From NCBI GenBank assembly GCA_021788565.1, contig JAJYKO010000027.1, positions 1 to 16,926 on the forward strand: a stretch of 16,926 nucleotides of DNA, in the 5' to 3' direction. Origin of the DNA: Chloroflexota bacterium. Its GTDB lineage: Bacteria; Chloroflexota; UBA6077. A program made the translations under genes and the position numbers. The notes beneath the pieces were generated by a model. The model did not search any database. It had not been told where the DNA came from and saw only the letters and a list, made by a program, of their open reading frames with translations. Positions 5,445 to 15,927 of the stretch are shown piece by piece; position 1 is the stretch's first letter; every line of letters starts with the position of its first letter.

Positions 5445-5541
5445 ATGAGCAGCGCGGGAATGACGATGGGCCCGCGTTGGTCTTAGTGTGGCAATATGTC
5501 ACATGCTATTCGTTGGAATCGGGAGATGGGGAGGCAAGACC

Positions 5542-6162
5542 ATGACGACATCATTCGAGGCAACTTATCCGAAAGAGATTGAGCCCACAGTCCAGTTCCA
5601 CGGCCATTTTTGCCCTGGCATCTCCATCGGCATACGCGCAGCCCAGATCGCCCTGCGCGAAATCGGCCCGCACTCGAAGGACGAGGAGGTCGTGGCCATT
5701 GTGGAGACCGACATGTGTGCCGTTGACGCCATCCAGCAGATGGTAGGCTGCACATTCGGCAAGGGCAATCTGTTCCACCTGGACTACGGGAAGAATGCGT
5801 TCACCTTCATTCGCCGATCAGACAGCAAGGCAATCCGCGTGATGTGCCAGCCCAACATCTTCGGGAAGGATCCGGAGCGCGAGCAGTTGATGGCGAGGAT
5901 GGATGCCGGCAAGGCATCTCCCGAGGACCAGCGGCGCTTCGACCAGCTCCAGCGGCAGAGAGGCCTGGACATCTTGAAAGCGCCGGAGGATCAGCTGTTC
6001 ACCGTGAAGGCGGTCGATCCGGTCATGCCGTCCCACGCACGGCTCCGTCACTCCGTCGAGTGCGAGATATGCGGAGAGTCCACCATGGAGACCCGTACCC
6101 GCCGGATCAACAGGCAGATCGTTTGTCTTCCCTGCTTCCAGAAGCTGGACAGCCGGTTCTAA
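5542..6162 (+). CDS. FmdE-domain protein with C-terminal zinc-ribbon-like motif
   Basis: 206 aa, no signal peptide, so cytoplasmic. The N-terminal part is an FmdE domain (named after formylmethanofuran dehydrogenase subunit E) with FHGHFCPG (residues 19-26, Cys 24) and conserved Cys 59 and Cys 70. A helical, charged linker follows, then a CxxC...CxxC pair (C174, C177, C195, C198) like a zinc ribbon. ATG 5542 has GGGGAGG 7 nt upstream; a longer in-frame start at 5488 lacks this. It lies inside the ABC operon, 3 nt before the second permease. No formylmethanofuran dehydrogenase genes are here, so a role in metal binding or delivery linked to import is the best guess. Function not established. 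Confidence 0.85.
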   Translation: MTTSFEATYPKEIEPTVQFHGHFCPGISIGIRAAQIALREIGPHSKDEEVVAIVETDMCAVDAIQQMVGCTFGKGNLFHLDYGKNAFTFIRRSDSKAIRVMCQPNIFGKDPEREQLMARMDAGKASPEDQRRFDQLQRQRGLDILKAPEDQLFTVKAVDPVMPSHARLRHSVECEICGESTMETRTRRINRQIVCLPCFQKLDSRF

Positions 6163-7222: not shown

Positions 7223-7984
7223 TTGAACGCGATGATCCTCTTGTCGGCGCTCGTTCTGGGAGGGCTCCACGCCATAGAGCCCGGCCATGGCAAGACCGTC
7301 GTGGCGGCCTACCTTGTGGGTTCGAGGGGGAGGGTGTCGGACGCGGTCATCCTGGGTGGAGTCGTCACCTTCACACACACGTCCAGCGTGATAGTGCTCG
7401 GCCTCCTCACGGCCCTAGCAGGGGCCTACCTGGTGCCAGAGACAGTGCACCGGGGGCTGGAGGTCATCTCTGGTCTGCTGGTGGTGGGCGTAGGGCTATG
7501 GATGGTCTGGACCCGCATGGTTCGGGGCCAGTCCGCCCACGGCCACACGCATGGACCGCATGGCGAGCACTTGCAGGAGCAGGAGCACGGTCATACCGAC
7601 GCTCAGGTTCACCAACATTCTCACGACAGTGTGAGCTTCGCCAGGCGGGAACGGGCCACGCTGGGGGGACTTGTGGCCCTGGGGATCTCCGGAGGGATGG
7701 TTCCATGCCCCGCGGCGCTGGCCTTGCTCCTGGCCGCCGTCGCCCTGGGCGACGTCCTGGCTGGGGTGTCGCTTGTGATCATCTTCAGCCTTGGGCTGGC
7801 GGCGGTCCTCATCGCGATCGGGATAATGCTCGTCAAGAGCGCCGACCTCGCCGGACGTCGTCTCCCCGCTGTGTTCGGCGAACATGGCGGTTTCGCCCGC
7901 TGGGCAGGGTCCGCCAGCGCCGTCGTCGTGACGCTGTTGGGCATCGGGATGACCGTGCGCGCAGCGGTAGACTGGCTATCCTAG
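7223..7984 (+). CDS. NicO-family nickel/cobalt transporter with His-rich loop
   Basis: 253 aa, inner-membrane protein of the NicO/RcnA/UreH group. The N-terminus carries HAIEPGHGKT (residues 16-25), a family metal motif, in the first helix region. THTSSV follows in the next helix. A His-rich cytoplasmic or periplasmic loop spans residues 106-134 with about ten His. The second half repeats the pattern with ISGGMVPCPAALALLL. Start TTG 7223 has AGAGGG 6 nt upstream; an ATG at 7232 is in frame but too far from that site. It can move Ni2+ or Co2+; direction (import or export) cannot be told from sequence. Next to a hydrogenase operon, nickel import is more likely. Its stop overlaps the end of the convergent CooC-like gene by 9 bp. 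Confidence 0.88.
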   Translation: MNAMILLSALVLGGLHAIEPGHGKTVVAAYLVGSRGRVSDAVILGGVVTFTHTSSVIVLGLLTALAGAYLVPETVHRGLEVISGLLVVGVGLWMVWTRMVRGQSAHGHTHGPHGEHLQEQEHGHTDAQVHQHSHDSVSFARRERATLGGLVALGISGGMVPCPAALALLLAAVALGDVLAGVSLVIIFSLGLAAVLIAIGIMLVKSADLAGRRLPAVFGEHGGFARWAGSASAVVVTLLGIGMTVRAAVDWLS

Positions 7985-8743
7985 CTCCAGCGATCTGGCC
8001 AGGCCGTATACCGCCCGCATCGCCGGACCCTCCGGCACGAAGTCGATGGGGGCCGTGCCCCGCCGCTCGGCCTCCGGGACCGCTTCGTCGTATGGGATCG
8101 TGGCTGCCAGGTTCAGATCATGATTCCAGCAATACTGAGATACGGCCTCTCGATCCGCCTCTGTTCTGATGCGATTCGCCGCTACGATAGTCTGCGGCAC
8201 GCGTAGCTCCTTTGCCAGATCGCGGATACGGGTGGCTGCCTCCAGTGCCCGGTAATACGGCTCGGTCACAACCAGCAGGGTATCGACGTGCTCCACTGTG
8301 CCGCGCCCCATGTGCTCTAGCCCAGCCTCCATGTCCAGCACCGCCACATCGGCCTCAGCCACCAGGTGTCCAGTGATGCCACGCGCCACGGCGTGGGCGT
8401 TGCAGCGTCAACCGACTCCGGCATGATCCACGGTTCCCATTACCAGCAGCCGCACACCGCCCGGGGTAGTGACGCCATACCGCTCCACCACCTCGCTGAC
8501 CGACATGGAGAGTTCTACGAAAGCTTTTCCCTTCGAGTCTTCTCGCCACCGGCCCAGGTCCGGCGGTGTCGGAGTGATCGCGGCGACCCGATCTCGCGGG
8601 ACACCGAGGGATATCGCCAGGTTAGGGTTGGAGTCCGCGTCCAGAGCCAGCACCTGCCTGCCGTCCTGTGCCAGGATACGCGCGAGCGTTCCAGCGATGG
8701 TCGTTTTTCCGACCCCGCCTTTTCCGGCAACTCCCAGCTTCAT
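7976..8743 (-). CDS. CooC-like MinD/ParA-family ATPase, candidate selenoprotein (in-frame UGA at codon 112)
   Basis: P-loop ATPase related to CooC, which loads nickel into CO dehydrogenase. If UGA at 8408-8410 is read through, it gives 255 aa. Deviant Walker A GKGGVGKTT (residues 7-15), ALDAD (33-37), then LLVMGTVDHAGVG-[UGA]-RCNAH, and Walker B-like VLDMEAGLEHMGR (from 135). In CooC the matching place is a CxC motif that binds metal between the two subunits; here UGA takes the first Cys and Cys 114 the second. The frame is unchanged across the UGA and the downstream half is well conserved. ATG 8743 has GGAGAGG upstream and lies 4 nt after the XRE gene stop. No CO dehydrogenase is present, so it probably serves the hydrogenase. 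Alternatives: nonsense mutation or sequencing error (TGC to TGA). A GTG at 8389 could restart the frame but has no Shine-Dalgarno. Confidence 0.75.
8379..8410 (-). promoter_or_regulatory. Candidate bacterial SECIS element following the in-frame UGA
   Basis: On the coding strand the UGA (8410-8408) is followed, after 11 nt, by a perfect 6-bp stem CCACGC (8396-8391) / GCGTGG (8384-8379) closing a 6-nt loop CGTGGC (8390-8385). The second loop base is G, 19 nt after the UGA. That fits the known bacterial pattern: a short hairpin just downstream, with a G in the first loop positions about 16-37 nt away. One further pair is possible with a bulged C. The region is GC-rich, so a 6-bp stem can arise by chance. 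Confidence 0.45.
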
Positions 8744-8747
8744 CGAC

Positions 8748-9068
8748 TCACCTCTCCGTCGTGCCGATCTTCTCTCCCGACGCGCACGTGCACCCCGGAC
8801 ATGCGCACTTCCCGTCGAACAGCGCCCGTTCCAGACGTAGCAGCTTCCGCAACAGCTCACGCTCCCGGCTGTCGAGCCCCTCCAGCACCTCCGGCAACTC
8901 AGCAGCCAGAGCAACCACGTGGTCGGCCGATGGAGTTTCCTCGCCGCTCTCCCAGAAGGAGACCGTGGTCTGGCTCACCCCCAGCCGCGCCGCCAGTTCA
9001 CGTTGGGTGAGGCCGCTCTTCGCCCGCGCCACCCTGAGCGCCAGTGATATCGGTCGAGCCCTGGCCAT
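8748..9068 (-). CDS. XRE-family HTH regulator with C-terminal Cys cluster
   Basis: 106 aa. Residues about 8-60 form an XRE/Cro HTH (SGLTQRELAARLGVSQTTVS, then FWESGEETPSADHV). A charged helix follows (about 66-85), then the tail CACPGCTC (C88, C90, C93, C95). The tail could hold a metal ion or Fe-S cluster and tune DNA binding to nickel, iron or redox state (inference). ATG 9068 has GGGAGG 8 nt upstream and overlaps the protease gene 3' end by 71 bp. Its likely targets are the operon promoter near 15980-16011 or the nickel operon leader, but no site is proven. Confidence 0.85.
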   Translation of the reverse strand: MARARPISLALRVARAKSGLTQRELAARLGVSQTTVSFWESGEETPSADHVVALAAELPEVLEGLDSRERELLRKLLRLERALFDGKCACPGCTCASGEKIGTTER

Positions 9069-9561
9069 GGAGTACCTCCCGGACCAGCCTCTCTATCTCG
9101 ATGGCCGCCTCTTTCGTCGCCTGCCGAACCGGCTCCGTCAGACCGATGCCAAGGTCGAAGAAATCCCCTGCCTGGCATCCGAGTATGAACACCCTGGGCG
9201 GCAGAACTCCCAGCGCCCGAGCAAGTACCAGCGCCCTAGACGGCGTCGCGTAGTGCATATCGGCCAGGAAATCGCGCTGTTCATCCTCGGGCCACATCGT
9301 CAGGTCGGGCACGTCCACCCTAAGGAGCTTCAAGGAGCCGGGTGGCTCTCCGCGATCGACGGCATCCACAATCACCAGGACGTCGTAGCAGTCGATGAGC
9401 TTCTGTACGAGATGGATCCCCCCGATCCCCACCTCGATCAAGTCCGCCTGAGGCGGGAGACCGTTTCGCTCTGTCAGTTGTCGCGTCACCTCTACGCCGA
9501 AACCATCGTCCCGCCGCAGGACGTTTCCCATGCCCGCGATCAGGATGCGTCTAACGAGCAA
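8998..9561 (-). CDS. Hydrogenase maturation protease (M52, HyaD/HybD type)
   Basis: Endopeptidase that clips the C-terminal tail of the large subunit once nickel is in place. 187 aa. It has the family's N-terminal ILIAGMGNVLRRDDGFGVEV, then VIVDAVDRGEPPG and DMHYATPSRAL. The three nickel-sensing ligands of HybD (E16, D62, H93) correspond to D19, D66 and H103, so it should be active. The start is TTG 9561, set by the conserved LLVRRILIAG beginning; no clear Shine-Dalgarno, and it overlaps the NifU-like gene by 22 bp, so translation is probably coupled. The large subunit has a 22-residue tail after its last CxxCxxH, a fitting substrate. The C-terminal 20 residues are low-complexity and overlap the XRE gene. 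Confidence 0.9.
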   Translation of the reverse strand: MLVRRILIAGMGNVLRRDDGFGVEVTRQLTERNGLPPQADLIEVGIGGIHLVQKLIDCYDVLVIVDAVDRGEPPGSLKLLRVDVPDLTMWPEDEQRDFLADMHYATPSRALVLARALGVLPPRVFILGCQAGDFFDLGIGLTEPVRQATKEAAIEIERLVREVLHGQGSTDITGAQGGAGEERPHPT

Positions 9562-10103
9562 CGGAGGTCCCAGCTTTCGAGTCCAGTGGCGGACATAACG
9601 TGTTCAGACTCTGCTTCACATATCTGCAAGGAACGGAAGGCAGGAAACTCCCGTCGTAGCGTTTCCTCAATGCTGCGGCTCAGAGAGTTGGTGGAGCGAG
9701 AGCACGCCAGGCAAGCTCCAGAAATGCGCAGAGTCACCATGCCATCCGCGACGTTCTCCACCTCGATCGCGCCGCCGTGGGCCCGAGCGTAGTCCTGGAA
9801 CGTGAAGAGTGCTGCGTCGACCCACGTTCGATCGTCGCAGGGAATGAGATCGTACATGAGCATGAGTTGCCGGACGATGGGGTCCTCGGCGAGCTGGTCC
9901 AGTAGTTCCGGGTGACCGCCTTCCTTGAGGATGGACACCACTCGCTCGAGGGGCTGCCGGTGCACGGCGTCGACGGCCTGAAGCAGGTCGACCGCCTTAT
10001 CCCTCACGCGCGGGTACGGGAGTTCCTCGAACTCCTGCCACAGTGCACTCAGGCGTTCCGCAGCCGATGCGAACTCCGCTTCCGCCGATCGCGGCTCGAG
10101 CAT
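9540..10103 (-). CDS. NifU-like (Nfu C-terminal domain) protein
   Basis: 187 aa. A helical N-terminal half (about 1-100) of no family I recognise is followed by an Nfu domain: HGGAIEVENVADGMVTLRIS then ACLACSRS (CxxC at 131-134) and a helix SIEETLRREFP. In Nfu proteins the CxxC holds a [4Fe-4S] cluster for transfer; here the small-subunit clusters are the likely target. ATG 10103 has AGGAGGGG 5 nt upstream; an in-frame start at 10136 adds 11 residues but has no such site. The last 20 bases run into the protease gene. The 122-bp gap upstream (10104-10225) shows no gene; it has a small GAGCG/CGCTC hairpin. Confidence 0.85.
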   Translation of the reverse strand: MLEPRSAEAEFASAAERLSALWQEFEELPYPRVRDKAVDLLQAVDAVHRQPLERVVSILKEGGHPELLDQLAEDPIVRQLMLMYDLIPCDDRTWVDAALFTFQDYARAHGGAIEVENVADGMVTLRISGACLACSRSTNSLSRSIEETLRREFPAFRSLQICEAESEHVMSATGLESWDLRCSLDAS

Positions 10104-10225
10104 TAGCCCCCTCCTACCAGTCAGTCTCCAGAGCACAGCTCGCCGGGCAGGGAAGGGCGAGCGTCCCGCTCACACGCCCTCCGGAATCCGTCCCTATCTA
10201 CCGGTTTTTGCGAACCACGTCATCC

Positions 10226-10606
10226 CTACAGATGCTGGCCATGAGACTCGCAGGCCTCGGGACCCAGGGTGTGGCAGGCGCAGTTGGGATCGCTGCACTC
10301 GCCGTGGGCCTGCCCCGTGAGCCCGGCGAACTCGTCCGCGAAGCGCCGCCCGCCCTCCTTCACCCCAAGCTCGGTGAGGCAATATCGTAGCGGGATCCCG
10401 TCCTGTACTGTCGTGGCGTAACTCTCGTCCACCAGCCGCACCAGACACTGTTGTACCAGTTCCTCGCCGACTTCCAGGAAAGTCACCAGGTCGCGCGCCG
10501 TCACCGACTCGCCCAGCCCCTCGCCGCGGAGCCAGTACAGGATCTGCAGGATCTCGTCGCGCCAGTAGAGCGCGTCCAGGGGATCACGTGCCAATTCGCC
10601 AGCCAC
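10226..10606 (-). CDS. Winged-helix-like protein with C-terminal Cys/His-rich tail
   Basis: 126 aa from GTG 10606, 7 nt after the upstream stop; only GAAGAG lies directly before it. Residues about 12-95 read as a winged helix (RDEILQILYWLRGEGLGES, VTARDLVTFLEVGEELVQQC, a wing YATTVQDGIPLRYCLTELG, then a last helix EGGRRFADEFAGL). The tail is Cys/His-rich: H101, C104, C109, C111, H112, C119, H122, H125, with a CSDPNCAC core. It may bind metal or an Fe-S cluster. It could be a regulator or, since it is embedded among maturation genes, a structural maturation factor. I do not recognise a named family. Confidence 0.75.
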   Translation of the reverse strand: MAGELARDPLDALYWRDEILQILYWLRGEGLGESVTARDLVTFLEVGEELVQQCLVRLVDESYATTVQDGIPLRYCLTELGVKEGGRRFADEFAGLTGQAHGECSDPNCACHTLGPEACESHGQHL

Positions 10607-10613
10607 CTCTTCG

Positions 10614-11123
10614 CTAATCGCCCGCTACCAACTCGCCGTCGTCCCCAGCCGCGAGCCTCCGCACCGCATCCACCACCTTCTCCAACGATCCCTCGACTCG
10701 CGGACTGAACCCCGGTCCCCAGTCGGTGTCTTCCGGCTCCACCTCCACGACCACCACATCTTCCGGAAGGGCGCCGAAGTGCTCGGCCACTATCAGCAGG
10801 TTGTCCAGACTGATGATGCCTGTGACCGCTTCAGCGACCCTCTCCTGGATCTGGGCGGCATCCGGCAAATCACCGCGCCAGCGGTAGCAGTAGACACCAC
10901 CGGGCTCCCGCCCCCTGCCTACTGCCGAAACCAGGACGATGCGGTCGTAGTGCCCGGGCCTGTCCTCCAGCCTCTGCACCACGGCGATGGGGCCGAAGCT
11001 CCAGTCGTCCACGTCAACATCCGACGGCCACTCCATCTCCCGCAGCCGCGGCACAAGTACGGGGCCGACCGACAGGTCCCTCAGGTTCGTGTATCCGACA
11101 CCCGCGATCATTACGTGAGTCAT
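10614..11123 (-). CDS. Hydrogenase maturation protease homologue lacking the metal ligands
   Basis: 169 aa with the M52 fold outline: VMIAGVGYTNLRDLSVGP, then HYDRIVLVSAVGRGREPGGV, then SLDNLLIVAEHFGALPEDVV and VEVEPEDTDWG. Aligned by eye with the canonical protease at 8998-9561, the three HybD ligand positions become L17 (E16), S66 (D62) and G102 (H93). So the nickel-sensing and cleavage site appears lost. It probably acts as a chaperone or scaffold for the large subunit, which it follows. No Shine-Dalgarno is visible before ATG 11123, and a second ATG at codon 5 is possible. The 52-bp gap before it is AT-rich. Confidence 0.82.
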   Translation of the reverse strand: MTHVMIAGVGYTNLRDLSVGPVLVPRLREMEWPSDVDVDDWSFGPIAVVQRLEDRPGHYDRIVLVSAVGRGREPGGVYCYRWRGDLPDAAQIQERVAEAVTGIISLDNLLIVAEHFGALPEDVVVVEVEPEDTDWGPGFSPRVEGSLEKVVDAVRRLAAGDDGELVAGD

Positions 11124-11175: not shown

Positions 11176-13050
11176 CTATTCGAGTCCGCACCCGCAGGTG
11201 TTGACCTCTCGGGTGACCACGAACGGACTGCCGTCGACGTGGATGTGCGTCGTGCACGGCATGCACGGGTCGAAGCTACGAATCGTCCGCAGGATATCGA
11301 TGCCCTTGAAACTCTCAGGGCTGCCAAACTCCTCCAGGATCGGGGTGTTCATCACCGACTCCTCGTAAGGGCCGGGGTTGCCCCATGGATCCTTGGGACT
11401 GGCGTTCCAGGTCGAAGGCGTGACGATCTGGTAGTTGCTCAGCGCTCCCTCGTCGATGACGGCGTGGTGGGTCAGGTACCCTCGGCCCGCACCCCAGAAT
11501 CCTGCCCCAATGTGCGTGCCTTTCCGGGGCACTTCAAATGGCGTATGGACTCTGTCCTTACCCTGTTTCAGAAGGTCGAGGCCGATCAGCCAGTTGTCGA
11601 ATGCCACGAGCGCGTTAAAGGGAATGCAATAGGCCCGTCCCCTGTTCCGCTCGAAGGCGTTCCAGAGGGTGGGGATCCTCCACTCGAGCTCCATCTCCGG
11701 CAGGCTCCCCTCCGGCACTCGCATCTTAAGGCTCGTGCCAGTCGGCTGTATGAAGCGGGTGTGCGGCATCACGTTGGACTGAGCGGTATTCCATATCCGC
11801 GCTGTGCACTCCCCCTCCATGGCACGCCGGTCCCACCTTGGCGATGTCCCCCATGAGTACTTCTCACGCCAGTTCTGGCCCGTCGGCTTCGGCTTGGTTT
11901 CCTTGTTCCACGGGTGGTAAGGACTTATTGGGTTTCCGGCCGGGTCCGTCTTGAAGCGGTGATTCGCCCAGTTCTCGTAGAACGAGTGCTCGACAAACTC
12001 CTCTATACCGATGTTCAGAGCCGTCAGATTGTGCGTCACGACCTGGCCATCGACAATTACCCCCGGCGTCGCCCATCGCCGCGCTCCCCATTCGTCGCAC
12101 CGCGCGTAGGAAGCGTCGTAGGAGAACGGGTCATCCCAGATGCCTGGGTCAATCATGTTCGCGGGACTGGCACCGACCTTCTTGTAGTCGGGATTCACAT
12201 CGTAGAAGAAATCGCACAGGTCGTCCCAGATCCCAACAACCTTCTTCGCGTAATCGAAGAGTTGGACCATGGATGGGTACATCTGGTTGAAGACACCGAC
12301 GTCGACAGTGCTGCTCACGCCGCCCGGGATGGCGGACTCAGGGTGCGGGTACTTGGCGGCGATCAGCACATAGGCGTCCCTTGCCACGCGGGTCATGTGG
12401 AGCCCTTCCAGGTACAAAGATCCGCTCAGCGGGTTCATGCCGGTCATGATGTCTCCGATGGTTCTGAACCCGTGTATATTGGCATGCGGTGCCGGCGTGG
12501 TCGTAGCCCTCTCCCACACCGATGGATTGGTCGTCTGGACGACCGCCTGGGAGTAATCCGGACCGGCCAGCAGAGCCAGGTGAATTGGGTTGTCATACAG
12601 GAACTCCAGTGCGAGCTCCAGGTTCCGTACGACGATGCCCAGGGGTGGAGGTGGTACGGGGAAGGCCATCTCCAGGGCAAGGGCCGAGCAGGTTGAGTGG
12701 ACGCCCCCGCATACCCCGCACGCTCGACTGCTGATGTACGCGGCGTCTCTGGGGTCCCGGCCCTTGAGTATCACCTCGTAGCCGCGGAAGAGGGTCCCCA
12801 TCGAGTCGGTCTCCAGGACGCGCCGCTCCCGCAGATCAACGACCGTGTGGAACGCGAGCGCTCCGGCCACGCGAGTGACCGGGTCGAAGTCTACTGGCTT
12901 GATGTGGCCGTTGCGAGCTAGCAACTCCTTGATCCGGTCGGCCTGCTCATCCAGCGACCGCGTCTCGTAGGCGTATGGGTCGCGCGCGCCCTCCTTGAGG
13001 TAGGCCCGACCGCTCTCATCGAATTCGATCGGCAGGTTCTTGAAGCACAT
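11176..13050 (-). CDS. hhyL: [NiFe]-hydrogenase large subunit, group 1h (Hhy) type
   Basis: Catalytic subunit that binds the Ni-Fe(CN)2CO centre and oxidises H2. 624 aa. The N-terminal motif RACGVCGGVHSTC gives C111, C114 and H118; the C-terminal motif DPCMPCTTH gives C596 and C599 (all four nickel ligands are Cys, not Sec). FDPVTRVAGAL (from 55), PPPLGIVVRNLELALEFL, LAGPDYSQ and HPWNKETKPKP resemble the high-affinity group 1h enzymes of actinobacteria as I remember them. A 22-residue tail follows H602 and is probably removed by the maturation protease. The tail has an odd TCGCGLE end. ATG 13050 has GAGAGGAGG upstream. It is separated from the small-subunit gene by five membrane-protein genes. 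The subgroup label is from memory. Confidence 0.93.
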   Translation of the reverse strand: MCFKNLPIEFDESGRAYLKEGARDPYAYETRSLDEQADRIKELLARNGHIKPVDFDPVTRVAGALAFHTVVDLRERRVLETDSMGTLFRGYEVILKGRDPRDAAYISSRACGVCGGVHSTCSALALEMAFPVPPPPLGIVVRNLELALEFLYDNPIHLALLAGPDYSQAVVQTTNPSVWERATTTPAPHANIHGFRTIGDIMTGMNPLSGSLYLEGLHMTRVARDAYVLIAAKYPHPESAIPGGVSSTVDVGVFNQMYPSMVQLFDYAKKVVGIWDDLCDFFYDVNPDYKKVGASPANMIDPGIWDDPFSYDASYARCDEWGARRWATPGVIVDGQVVTHNLTALNIGIEEFVEHSFYENWANHRFKTDPAGNPISPYHPWNKETKPKPTGQNWREKYSWGTSPRWDRRAMEGECTARIWNTAQSNVMPHTRFIQPTGTSLKMRVPEGSLPEMELEWRIPTLWNAFERNRGRAYCIPFNALVAFDNWLIGLDLLKQGKDRVHTPFEVPRKGTHIGAGFWGAGRGYLTHHAVIDEGALSNYQIVTPSTWNASPKDPWGNPGPYEESVMNTPILEEFGSPESFKGIDILRTIRSFDPCMPCTTHIHVDGSPFVVTREVNTCGCGLE

Positions 13051-13067: not shown

Positions 13068-13337
13068 CTAGCCCCGCAGGGTCTGGGCGATGGCGCGGAG
13101 GCGCTCGTCGACCGCGACGAGACGGCTGTACAGCGTCGTCGCGGCGTCGTTTACAGCCGGCAGATCCTGGGAGAGCGGCGCAGTATTGTCGCGGATTGCC
13201 TTCAGTCCCTCGGTAAGTTTGGCCAGATTCTCGTTTGCGCGGACGAGCGCCGTCGCCGCGGGAACCAGATAGGCGACGAGAAGCACGACGACCGACCCGG
13301 TGGTCAGTAGGGTGAGCGAGATCAAGAGCTTCTTCAC
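13068..13337 (-). CDS. Small single-TM membrane protein 5 (hydrogenase-linked family)
   Basis: 89 aa. Residues 4-29 form a TM helix (LLISLTLLTTGSVVVLLVAYLV). A helical, amphipathic C-terminal part follows, with the shared motif AIRDNTAPL (N51, T52). No Cys or clear haem ligands. ATG 13337 overlaps the previous gene by 4 bp. It lies 17 bp before the large-subunit gene. See the shared-motif finding. Confidence 0.82.
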   Translation of the reverse strand: MKKLLISLTLLTTGSVVVLLVAYLVPAATALVRANENLAKLTEGLKAIRDNTAPLSQDLPAVNDAATTLYSRLVAVDERLRAIAQTLRG

Positions 13338-13654
13338 TGCTGACCCTCCTCAGCGTTCTCGGGAGGGCGTGCCGGCCGCGCCGCGAGGGCGTCCTGCAAC
13401 GCTGCCAGATGGCTCTCCATCGACTGGGCTCCAGAGACCAGTTGGGGGGCCAGAGAGAGCGTCTGCTTGAGAGCTGTCGCCTTAGACGTGTTCTCGGCGA
13501 TGCCCGCCCCGGCTCGCAGAATCTCTTCGGAGTACAGCTCTATATGTCGTGCGGCTGCCCGGGCGCGGATGAGCCACGACACCAGGTTAGGCAGGAAGGC
13601 TAAAACCGCGCCGAGAAGGCTTATCCACCAGACGATCGCCACGAATGGGTTCAT
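13334..13654 (-). CDS. Small single-TM membrane protein 4 (hydrogenase-linked family)
   Basis: 106 aa. N-terminal TM at about 5-29 (VAIVWWISLLGAVLAFLPNL), then a long helical region with the shared motif GIAENTSKA (N55, T56) and a charged Pro/Glu-rich end. No Cys. It overlaps both neighbours by 4 bp (ATGA type), so these genes are translationally coupled. Confidence 0.82.
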   Translation of the reverse strand: MNPFVAIVWWISLLGAVLAFLPNLVSWLIRARAAARHIELYSEEILRAGAGIAENTSKATALKQTLSLAPQLVSGAQSMESHLAALQDALAARPARPPENAEEGQQ

Positions 13655-13950
13655 CGCGAGCGCCCCTTTCCGCCGGACAGCGCGCTGACTGTGGCGACCA
13701 GACTCTGATCAACGGCTGCCAACTGTCCGGCCAGCTTGCTCAGTCCTTCGTTGAGCCGCCCGACCTCCGGAGCGAGGTGGCTGGTCTCCTTTTCGATCGC
13801 GCGCACCCCGAAGCGGATCTTAGCCAGGTAGCTGCCGCCCAGCCCCCCGATCCTCTCTAGGGAGGTGACTATTCGGAACAGGAAGTAGACCAGAGCCACC
13901 GCCAGAATGGCGACCTCTAGCGCAGTGAGAACGACTAGACGGATAGTCAT
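13651..13950 (-). CDS. Small single-TM membrane protein 3 (hydrogenase-linked family)
   Basis: 99 aa. N-terminal TM at about 4-27 (RLVVLTALEVAILAVALVYF), then a helical tail with heptad-like hydrophobics (LAPEVGRLNEGLSKLAGQL) suited to a coiled coil. The shared motif appears as AIEKETSHL (E55, T56), Glu replacing Asn. ATG 13950 overlaps the previous stop by 4 bp. Confidence 0.82.
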   Translation of the reverse strand: MTIRLVVLTALEVAILAVALVYFLFRIVTSLERIGGLGGSYLAKIRFGVRAIEKETSHLAPEVGRLNEGLSKLAGQLAAVDQSLVATVSALSGGKGRSR

Positions 13951-14246
13951 GATGGGCCTCCCTTTCCCGATGCGCCACCGGCTGCCGTCTGGATCCGGCT
14001 AGCGGCGCGAGCGATCTCGTCCGCGGTGTCAGAGACCTCACCCAGGTTCTGATTGACGCGCCCAAGGAGCGCAATGTGGACCGTGTTGTTGGCGATCAGC
14101 TTCCCCACCTGCCAGACCTGAGCGGAGCCCTGGAGGACCTCCTCGGACGTCCGGCAAAGGACACCCAGCAGCGACGCAACTACGCCGAGGACCGCCAGTC
14201 CGGCAGCGAGGCTGATCCCCCAGCACTTGACGACGGAGTCTGACAT
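13947..14246 (-). CDS. Small single-TM membrane protein 2 (hydrogenase-linked family)
   Basis: 99 aa from ATG 14246, chosen because GGGAGG lies just upstream; an in-frame start at 14333 would add a 29-residue Arg-rich stretch that overlaps the gene before it. TM at about 10-31 (GISLAAGLAVLGVVASLLGV), then a helical part with the shared motif LIANNTVHI (N54, T55). Cys 8 and Cys 31 flank the TM. It follows the previous gene by 16 bp. Confidence 0.82.
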   Translation of the reverse strand: MSDSVVKCWGISLAAGLAVLGVVASLLGVLCRTSEEVLQGSAQVWQVGKLIANNTVHIALLGRVNQNLGEVSDTADEIARAASRIQTAAGGASGKGGPS

Positions 14247-14262
14247 GACCTTATCCTCCCCT

Positions 14263-14553
14263 CTACCGCGCCCGCGGTCCCTCGAGGCTGTCGGCGATCT
14301 CGGACGCATGTTGAGAAATCGCACGGGCGCCAAGCAGAAGCTGCCCGGACAGCGAGTCGGTATCCGCGAGTTTCCAGATTGGCCTGGTATTGGTCACAAT
14401 ATCCTGCGCCAGGCCCTGGATGCGCAAAGCGTTGGCCCGGATGCTTCGAGCCGTCACGATGATCGCCAGCAGAAGTGCGGCAACAGCGGCGACAACGACG
14501 CCCGCGAGTGCCGCGCCCGTGTACCAATACCGGAGTACCTTTTTGCGAGACAT
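14263..14553 (-). CDS. Small single-TM membrane protein 1 (hydrogenase-linked family)
   Basis: 96 aa. A positive N-terminus (MSRKKVLRYW) and a TM at about 11-34 (TGAALAGVVVAAVAALLLAI) suggest the C-terminal part faces outward, by the positive-inside rule. A helical tail follows with the shared motif DIVTNTRPI (N55, T56). ATG 14553 has GGAGG 7 nt upstream. First of five such genes after the small subunit, which it follows by 45 bp. Confidence 0.82.
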   Translation of the reverse strand: MSRKKVLRYWYTGAALAGVVVAAVAALLLAIIVTARSIRANALRIQGLAQDIVTNTRPIWKLADTDSLSGQLLLGARAISQHASEIADSLEGPRAR

Positions 14554-14598: not shown

Positions 14599-15927
14599 TC
14601 ACAGCTGTGGCGTGCGGTGAGTGCTCTCGCCTGCTCTCACGCCCGGCACTTCGTATCCGCCGGGGTACTCTTCGTAGGGCTTGGTCCGCCCTGGCCGCTC
14701 CGTTCCGATATGCTGGAACCTCTCGTAGAAGTAGTGGATAAGCACCCTCCCGATAGCAGGCTTCGTCACGTGGCCCCACCCGCTGGGGACCTCCTCTGTC
14801 GAACCCCACCTGAGTTCCCGATTCTGGAACTCCTGGGTGATGCTCCTGAGCTTCCGCACGAAGAGACCGTAGCTCTTCGATGCGTTGGAGGACACAAGCG
14901 TTCCGGGCGGTCGCTGGTAGAAGGGGGAGAAGCGATCCGGGAACCCGGGCATCATGCAGCCGATGCACGGCGCACCTGCCCTCATACAACCACCCCGATA
15001 ATTGATCGCGCCACGCTCCGTGATCCTGCATTGCACCACGGGCCCCCAGCAACCAATCTCCACCAGGCACTCCCTATCGCCGTAGTGCTTCGCGAAGACA
15101 CCCTCCTCGTAATATCCGGCCCGAGGGCAGTGGCGATGTACCGTCTCGTTGAACTGCCATTGAGGCCGGCCCAATTCGTCGAATTCGGGGAGGGGACCGT
15201 AGCCATTGAGGAAAAGCAGCACAGCGGCGACGGTCTCCATGAAATCATCGCCGATGGGCGAGCAGCCCGGCTGATTGACTACCGGCAGCCCCAGGGCACT
15301 CACATAATCCTTCCCCAGAAAATCCATGACGCTCATGGAGCCCGTCGCGTTGCCCTCCGCGGCTGGGATGCCGCCCCACGTGGCGCAGGTGCCGATCGCG
15401 ATCACCGCCGCGGCTCCTGGGGCCATTCGCTTCAGCCAGGTCGCGGTTGGGATCGGCTTCATTTCGCCGTTTACCTCCTCCGTGCCCATGGACGCCCAGT
15501 AGCCACCCGTCTCCGCGGCCACGGACTCGTCTGGGACGGAGCCCTCGTACACGACCACGTAGGGTGCTTTGAGCTTGCCCTCCACAGCCAGCCTGTAGTT
15601 CTTCACGAACTCCTCTCCGGCCTCCGTCGAGAGAACGTAGTGATGCAACACGACCCGAGGCAGTCCGGGCAACTTCCCCGTCAGGAGATCCTCGATACTG
15701 GGTGTTGTCGCTCCAGACACGGCGATTGTGCATCCGTCGCAGCTCATCCCGGCTAGCCAGAACACGTGAACCACCTGAACGGGGCCGAGGGCAGCACCGG
15801 GCCGCTCCATCGTGTGAATCTTCCTCCGTTCGCGCTCGGCGCTTGACGAGAGCACATCCTCAGCCGCGATTCGCGCCGCCACCGTCTCCCTGGCAAGCGG
15901 AGGAGGTACCGGCATTAGCTCTTCCAT
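14599..15927 (-). CDS. hhyS: [NiFe]-hydrogenase small subunit, group 1h-like
   Basis: Electron-transfer subunit with three Fe-S clusters, 442 aa. Proximal-cluster ligands: C63 and C66 (MSCDGC), C181 (GTCATWGG) and C222 (PGCSP). Distal: H264, C267, C287, C293. Medial region: C300, C314, C321, C324 (CIGC). TTPSIEDLLTGKLPGLP and the block from HCPRAGYYEEG to GCWGPVVQC are close to group 1h enzymes as I remember them. In group 1h one proximal Cys is replaced by Asp (CDGD); here it is Cys. An extra ~50-residue N-terminal part precedes the core and has no twin-arginine signal, so the enzyme should stay on the cytoplasmic side. No C-terminal TM. ATG 15927 has AAAGGAG 9 nt upstream. First gene of the operon. 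Confidence 0.93.
   Translation of the reverse strand: MEELMPVPPPLARETVAARIAAEDVLSSSAERERRKIHTMERPGAALGPVQVVHVFWLAGMSCDGCTIAVSGATTPSIEDLLTGKLPGLPRVVLHHYVLSTEAGEEFVKNYRLAVEGKLKAPYVVVYEGSVPDESVAAETGGYWASMGTEEVNGEMKPIPTATWLKRMAPGAAAVIAIGTCATWGGIPAAEGNATGSMSVMDFLGKDYVSALGLPVVNQPGCSPIGDDFMETVAAVLLFLNGYGPLPEFDELGRPQWQFNETVHRHCPRAGYYEEGVFAKHYGDRECLVEIGCWGPVVQCRITERGAINYRGGCMRAGAPCIGCMMPGFPDRFSPFYQRPPGTLVSSNASKSYGLFVRKLRSITQEFQNRELRWGSTEEVPSGWGHVTKPAIGRVLIHYFYERFQHIGTERPGRTKPYEEYPGGYEVPGVRAGESTHRTPQL

What the first reader, a model, noticed from the sequence alone, without database searches (positions are those of the whole stretch)
7976..8743. Candidate selenocysteine in the metal-binding CxC motif of a CooC-like nickel ATPase
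The gene is interrupted only by one in-frame TGA (8410-8408). Both halves are in the same frame and keep all ATPase motifs. By codon count the TGA is residue 112, with Cys at 114. In CooC1 the CxC pair (C112/C114 as I recall) binds metal at the dimer interface. A stop falling exactly on the first of those Cys is hard to explain by chance. A Sec-x-Cys nickel site in a hydrogenase maturation ATPase would be, to my knowledge, undescribed.
Basis: partly seen in the sequence, partly recalled or inferred. Interest (0 to 1): 0.92.

Follow-up and report, generated by a model that had tools for sequence, protein, structure and literature searches.

The report
Selenocysteine in a nickel-delivery ATPase
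A gene that probably helps load nickel into a hydrogen-burning enzyme carries a stop codon exactly where its relatives have a metal-binding cysteine, and over a hundred relatives in public data break at the same point, so the codon is most likely read as the rare amino acid selenocysteine, in a selenoprotein family that we found in no list.

Summary
The minus-strand gene 8743-7976 has one in-frame TGA (8410-8408), codon 112. The 120 listed full-length relatives all have Cys there and at 114; both positions align with C112/C114 of CooC1, PDB 3kje.

The new evidence is recurrence. A search with only the 111 residues before the TGA gave 664 hits, 120 listed. Of the 119 listed besides the window's own, 118 end at residue 111. 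The mirror search with the downstream part gave 68 hits; of 67 besides the own, 27 start at residue 113. Four relatives have both halves on a contig of the same length from the same source. A sequencing error or decay in this one genome cannot explain that. Decoding as Sec is the best reading (0.87).

The gene lies beside a group 1h [NiFe]-hydrogenase. The 119-family table of a 2026 review has no such selenoprotein.

Not shown: SelA/B/C/D in this genome (none held), the stop codon's identity in relatives (no DNA reachable), a distinctive SECIS (the hairpin is no better than synonymous variants).

The parts
7976..8743 (-). CooC-like SIMIBI ATPase, 255 residues when TGA is read as a residue; proposed Sec at 112, Cys at 114
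8408..8410 (-). in-frame TGA, codon 112; Cys in 120 of 120 listed full-length relatives
8363..8407 (-). 45 bases after the TGA, where a bacterial SECIS hairpin would lie; a hairpin folds here but is not better than shuffled or synonymous sequence (inconclusive)
8748..9068 (-). helix-turn-helix protein with CACPGCTC tail directly upstream; an HTH domain is fused to the ATPase in several relatives
8998..9561 (-). hydrogenase maturation protease (TIGR00072, over cut-off)
9540..10136 (-). NifU-domain protein
10226..10606 (-). 126-aa protein without family match, Cys/His-rich tail
10614..11123 (-). second hydrogenase maturation protease-like protein (TIGR00072, over cut-off)
11176..13050 (-). [NiFe]-hydrogenase large subunit; best PDB match 5aa5, HofG
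14599..15927 (-). [NiFe]-hydrogenase small subunit; best PDB match 5aa5, HofK
7223..7984 (+). NicO-type nickel/cobalt transporter, convergent with the ATPase gene (ends overlap by 9 bases)

Best explanation
The gene encodes a CooC-like, MinD/NifH-class ATPase that helps deliver nickel to the neighbouring group 1h [NiFe]-hydrogenase. Its TGA at codon 112 is decoded as selenocysteine, giving a Sec-Arg-Cys metal site at the dimer interface in place of the usual Cys-Arg-Cys. Shown here: the TGA, its position at the invariant Cys, the recurrence of a break there in relatives with conserved downstream halves, the CooC1-like sequence and fold, and the hydrogenase neighbourhood. Inferred: decoding as Sec, nickel as the metal, the hydrogenase as client, and the benefit (a softer, more easily re-reduced ligand for a chaperone working in oxic conditions).
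Against: No Sec machinery could be sought: no genome is held for the window; the window has no tRNA gene and no Rfam match at gathering score. The hairpin after the TGA is not better than chance (z 0.48, 133 of 200 shuffles fold as well; 43% of 2000 synonymous variants fold at least as well). The stop codon in relatives was inferred from protein ends, not read in DNA. The 120 listed full-length relatives are plain Cys forms, so Sec is not required for the fold or family. Among the 34 more distant loci, the 30 readable ones have Cys codons, and searches of three groups of genomes listed no match with a stop at this codon.
Confidence: 0.87

Rival explanations
1. The TGA is read as cysteine (or another amino acid) by a suppressor tRNA, for instance a tRNA-Cys with UCA anticodon, which I recall has been described as able to read Sec codons.
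For: The position is Cys in all 120 listed full-length relatives, so Cys insertion would restore the known protein. The present data cannot separate Cys from Sec.
Against: 7 of the 19 ORFs taken as genes use TGA as their stop, so general suppression would be costly. Such tRNAs are rare as far as I recall. No tRNA gene is in the window, which says nothing of the genome.
Confidence: 0.05
2. The gene is truly split: two polypeptides, the second started anew after the stop, assemble without the first Cys.
For: 27 of 67 C-terminal hits begin at codon 113, printed as M, so a start codon stands directly after the break, which would allow re-initiation in those lineages.
Against: In the window codon 113 is CGC; the next start codon in frame is GTG at codon 118, beyond the CxC motif. 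A split hitting exactly the invariant metal-ligand codon in diverged lineages has no reason under this view.
Confidence: 0.05
3. Local nonsense mutation, pseudogene or sequencing error (TGC to TGA) in this contig.
For: One base change from TGC, the commoner Cys codon here (61 TGC, 12 TGT); no SECIS signal.
Against: The same break occurs in 118 of 119 listed fragments, and the downstream half is conserved in four paired relatives.
Confidence: 0.03

Closest known systems
CooC1 of Carboxydothermus (PDB 3kje/3kjg/3kjh/3kji), nickel ATPase for CO dehydrogenase
   Same: P-loop, fold and CxC spacing; C112/C114 align residue for residue
   Different: First ligand encoded by TGA; the neighbours are a hydrogenase and its helpers, and no CO dehydrogenase was recognised among the window proteins searched
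CobW-related selenoprotein (NF041053, UxxC), listed in PMC13188914 Table 1
   Same: Selenoprotein of a metal-chaperone P-loop NTPase (class recalled)
   Different: Different family and motif; its model is not among the 22 NCBIfam matches of this protein
HypB, NTPase for nickel insertion into hydrogenases
   Same: Nickel delivery to hydrogenase by an NTPase that dimerises, with metal-chelating residues at the interface (PMC3792862 passage)
   Different: HypB works with guanine nucleotides (same passage) and is another subfamily (recalled); none was recognised among the window proteins searched
[NiFeSe] hydrogenases
   Same: Selenium tied to a nickel enzyme system
   Different: There Sec is in the enzyme's large subunit; here the large subunit reads DPCMPC with Cys and the Sec would sit in a maturation factor

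Membership tests
Bacterial selenoprotein | in-frame TGA at a position held by Cys in homologues | tested here: met
   120 of 120 listed have Cys
Bacterial selenoprotein | break at the same codon in several diverged relatives, with conserved downstream sequence | tested here: met
   stop identity in the relatives not seen
Bacterial selenoprotein | SECIS hairpin directly after the TGA | tested here: inconclusive
   hairpin present, not better than shuffled or synonymous sequences
Bacterial selenoprotein | selA, selB, selC, selD in the genome | not testable with these tools
   no genome held for the window
Bacterial selenoprotein | Sec shown in the protein | not testable with these tools
   needs 75Se label or mass spectrometry
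CooC (CO dehydrogenase nickel ATPase) | SIMIBI fold with GKGGVGKTT P-loop | tested here: met
CooC (CO dehydrogenase nickel ATPase) | CxC metal motif at 112/114 | tested here: met
   for position; the first residue is TGA-encoded, so CxC strictly holds only if it is read as Cys or Sec
CooC (CO dehydrogenase nickel ATPase) | linked to a CO dehydrogenase gene | tested here: not met
   none among the window proteins searched; it is therefore called CooC-like, not CooC
CooC (CO dehydrogenase nickel ATPase) | binds nickel, hydrolyses ATP | not testable with these tools
   needs purified protein
Group 1h [NiFe]-hydrogenase (neighbouring genes) | subunits closest to HofK/HofG (5aa5) by sequence | tested here: met
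   large E 9.1e-150 against 2.4e-50 for the next chain; small E 1.6e-103 against 4.1e-44; that 5aa5 is group 1h is recalled

The most novel reading that the evidence does not exclude
A large, so far unlisted selenoprotein family: nickel-delivery ATPases, here for a group 1h (trace-hydrogen) hydrogenase, whose dimer-interface metal site is Sec-x-Cys. It occurs in two groups of sequences, possibly through separate Cys-to-Sec switches, and stands in protein data as two pieces.
Probability: 0.78. Interest if true: 0.82.

Novelty: new variant of a known kind. Interest (0 to 1): 0.78.

Why it matters
Sec as a metal ligand in a metallochaperone, rather than in a redox enzyme, would be an unusual use of selenium and would tie selenium supply to hydrogenase maturation, possibly in bacteria that live on trace hydrogen. 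Probably hundreds of database proteins (664 hits, 120 seen) would need re-annotation. It also makes testable why a nickel chaperone would pay for Sec: oxygen tolerance, metal release or selectivity.

Tried and rejected
DNA of TGA-bearing relatives was sought and not reached. The one genome-contig scan gave 34 more distant loci: Cys codons at the motif in 30 of 34; L027, L029, L033 and L034 gave no reading. Searches of 198 genomes of the phylum of a MAG titled Deltaproteobacteria, 246 of the phylum of a Planctomycetota MAG, 296 relatives of that MAG, 6 single genomes and 299 of the phylum of a MAG titled Bacillota (the tool names no phylum) listed no match with a stop at this codon; the two listed with a stop (G028, G138) hold only the gene's own end. 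Those searches listed only the best rows, and the last four used strict E-value limits (1e-50, 1e-62, 1e-45, 1e-64); one search had no match at all, which shows nothing. Two of the best Desulfo-type matches were looked at in context; no hydrogenase is seen by eye among their ORFs of 150 or 180 aa and more. Viral contigs: the profile scan gave weak matches, most of them short P-loop stretches, best E 1e-7; three pattern matches were chance when translated. Plasmids: 2 records, 36% and 26% identity.

SECIS: Rfam none at gathering score, fold z 0.48, synonymous control 0.43. I drop it as evidence either way.

Tree of 239 N-terminal parts (quick method, 111 columns; P0128 and the own fragment P0122 left out; 'Sec' there means 'ends at 111'): at least two changes between Cys and Sec. 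The window and P0123-P0127 form one group (support 97) among Cys relatives, 112 other Sec rows lie apart, and P0161, a long branch, sits at the base of the Cys side. The starred branches do not rule out one origin, so separate switches are only possible.

Two contig-length matches with differing sources (P0144/P0268, P0148/P0302) were not counted as pairs.

Papers: ten searches (53 was on CooC1 and 68 on the hydrogenase operon; two returned nothing) showed no report of a Sec CooC-like protein in their listings. Of PMC13188914 I read passages and parts 1 and 2 of 3 of section 7, with all of Table 1; of PMC9312934, PMC5424206, PMC3792862 and PMC1794560 only passages around search terms; of PMC12013277 only that none of six terms occurs. 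The library lacks most subscription papers.

Full report

Is the stop an accident? The 120 listed full-length relatives (4248 hits; only the best 120 listed) all have Cys at both positions. A random single-base stop had 64 ways to arise in the gene; by the code two of them hit the CxC pair. That is suggestive only. So I asked whether other genomes hold the gene broken at the same place. Gene callers end at a stop, so I searched with the 111 residues before the TGA; the tool then takes only candidates of 0.55 to 1.75 times that length, which leaves full-length relatives out. This gave 664 hits of 731 candidates; 120 were listed. Leaving out the window's own, 118 of 119 end opposite residue 111, and one (P0128) opposite residue 100. 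Identity of the listed relatives to the window runs from 79% to 52%. Of 119 listed rows with a contig length (own included) 67 lie on contigs of at least 2 kb and 33 on at least 5 kb, so contig ends are not the cause.

The mirror search with the 143 residues after the TGA gave 68 hits of 280 candidates. Of 67 besides the own, 27 begin opposite residue 113, 31 between 116 and 138, and 9 further upstream. Where C-parts begin at 113 and N-parts end at 111, one codon is missing, which a stop explains. In four relatives both halves sit on a contig of the same length from the same source (P0124/P0244, P0125/P0245, P0126/P0243, P0127/P0247). Their N-halves are 73-79% and their C-halves 66-73% identical to the window. 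Conservation past the stop at that divergence argues that the downstream part is still translated.

How it probably works. CooC1 is an ATPase that delivers nickel to CO dehydrogenase, and a Cys-X-Cys at its dimer interface holds the metal (PMC3792862, passage). Here the first of those ligands is TGA-encoded. The surroundings are those of a hydrogenase: small and large subunits closest to HofK/HofG of 5aa5, the actinobacterial-type or group 1h enzyme (group name recalled), two maturation-protease-like proteins, a NifU-domain protein and a NicO-type nickel transporter. The large subunit keeps Cys in its C-terminal motif. I therefore propose a nickel-loading factor for this hydrogenase with a Sec-x-Cys site. 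The client, the metal and the reason for selenium are inference. Group 1h enzymes are known, from recall, for oxidising trace hydrogen in air; selenolate may keep the chaperone usable after oxidation. The gene neighbourhood was seen only in this window, not in the relatives.

What speaks against or stays open. No genome is held for the window, so selA, selB, selC and selD could not be sought. The stop codon in the relatives was not read in DNA. The hairpin after the TGA is ordinary: z 0.48, and 43% of 2000 synonymous variants fold as well. The searches of reachable genomes listed only forms without a stop at this codon; those read belong to other subfamilies whose motif context differs (GGxGCxCPE in place of GCRCxAH). 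Reading as Cys by an unusual tRNA cannot be separated from Sec here. Re-initiation is conceivable where codon 113 is a start codon, but in the window it is CGC.

Origin. In a tree of 239 N-terminal parts, the window and five fragment relatives form one group (support 97) among Cys relatives, 112 other broken forms lie apart, and one (P0161, long branch) is at the base of the Cys side; at least two changes are needed, and one origin is not excluded by the well-supported branches.

Novelty. Table 1 of a 2026 review, 119 families or subfamilies, has no CooC, MinD or hydrogenase-maturation ATPase; its nearest entry is a CobW-related selenoprotein (PMC13188914). Ten paper searches showed no report in their listings. 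The closest kinds are known (Sec variants of Cys proteins; CooC-type ATPases), so I file it as a new variant of a known kind.

Noticed in passing
8748-9068 (-): A helix-turn-helix protein with a CACPGCTC tail ends 4 bases before the ATPase start. In 8 listed relatives of 357-389 aa an HTH domain is fused to the ATPase, and 7 of these 8 keep a CxCxxCxC motif at residues 88-94, between the parts; it may sense or hand over metal.
   Followed up: partly
13068-14553 (-): Five small ORFs between the hydrogenase subunit genes; the four tested have no Pfam match. Several show one apparent membrane helix, and neighbours overlap by a few bases (by eye).
   Followed up: partly
10226-10606 (-): 126-aa protein with no family match and a Cys/His-rich tail, within the hydrogenase cluster.
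   Followed up: no
5488-6162 (+): FmdE-domain protein with a DksA/TraR-type zinc finger between genes that look like an oligopeptide/nickel ABC importer (by eye, not searched).
   Followed up: no
P0252-P0256, P0259-P0278, P0285, P0289: In these 27 downstream fragments a start codon stands exactly at codon 113, directly after the inferred stop; whether this is Met/Val in Sec-x-Cys or used for re-initiation is open.
   Followed up: partly
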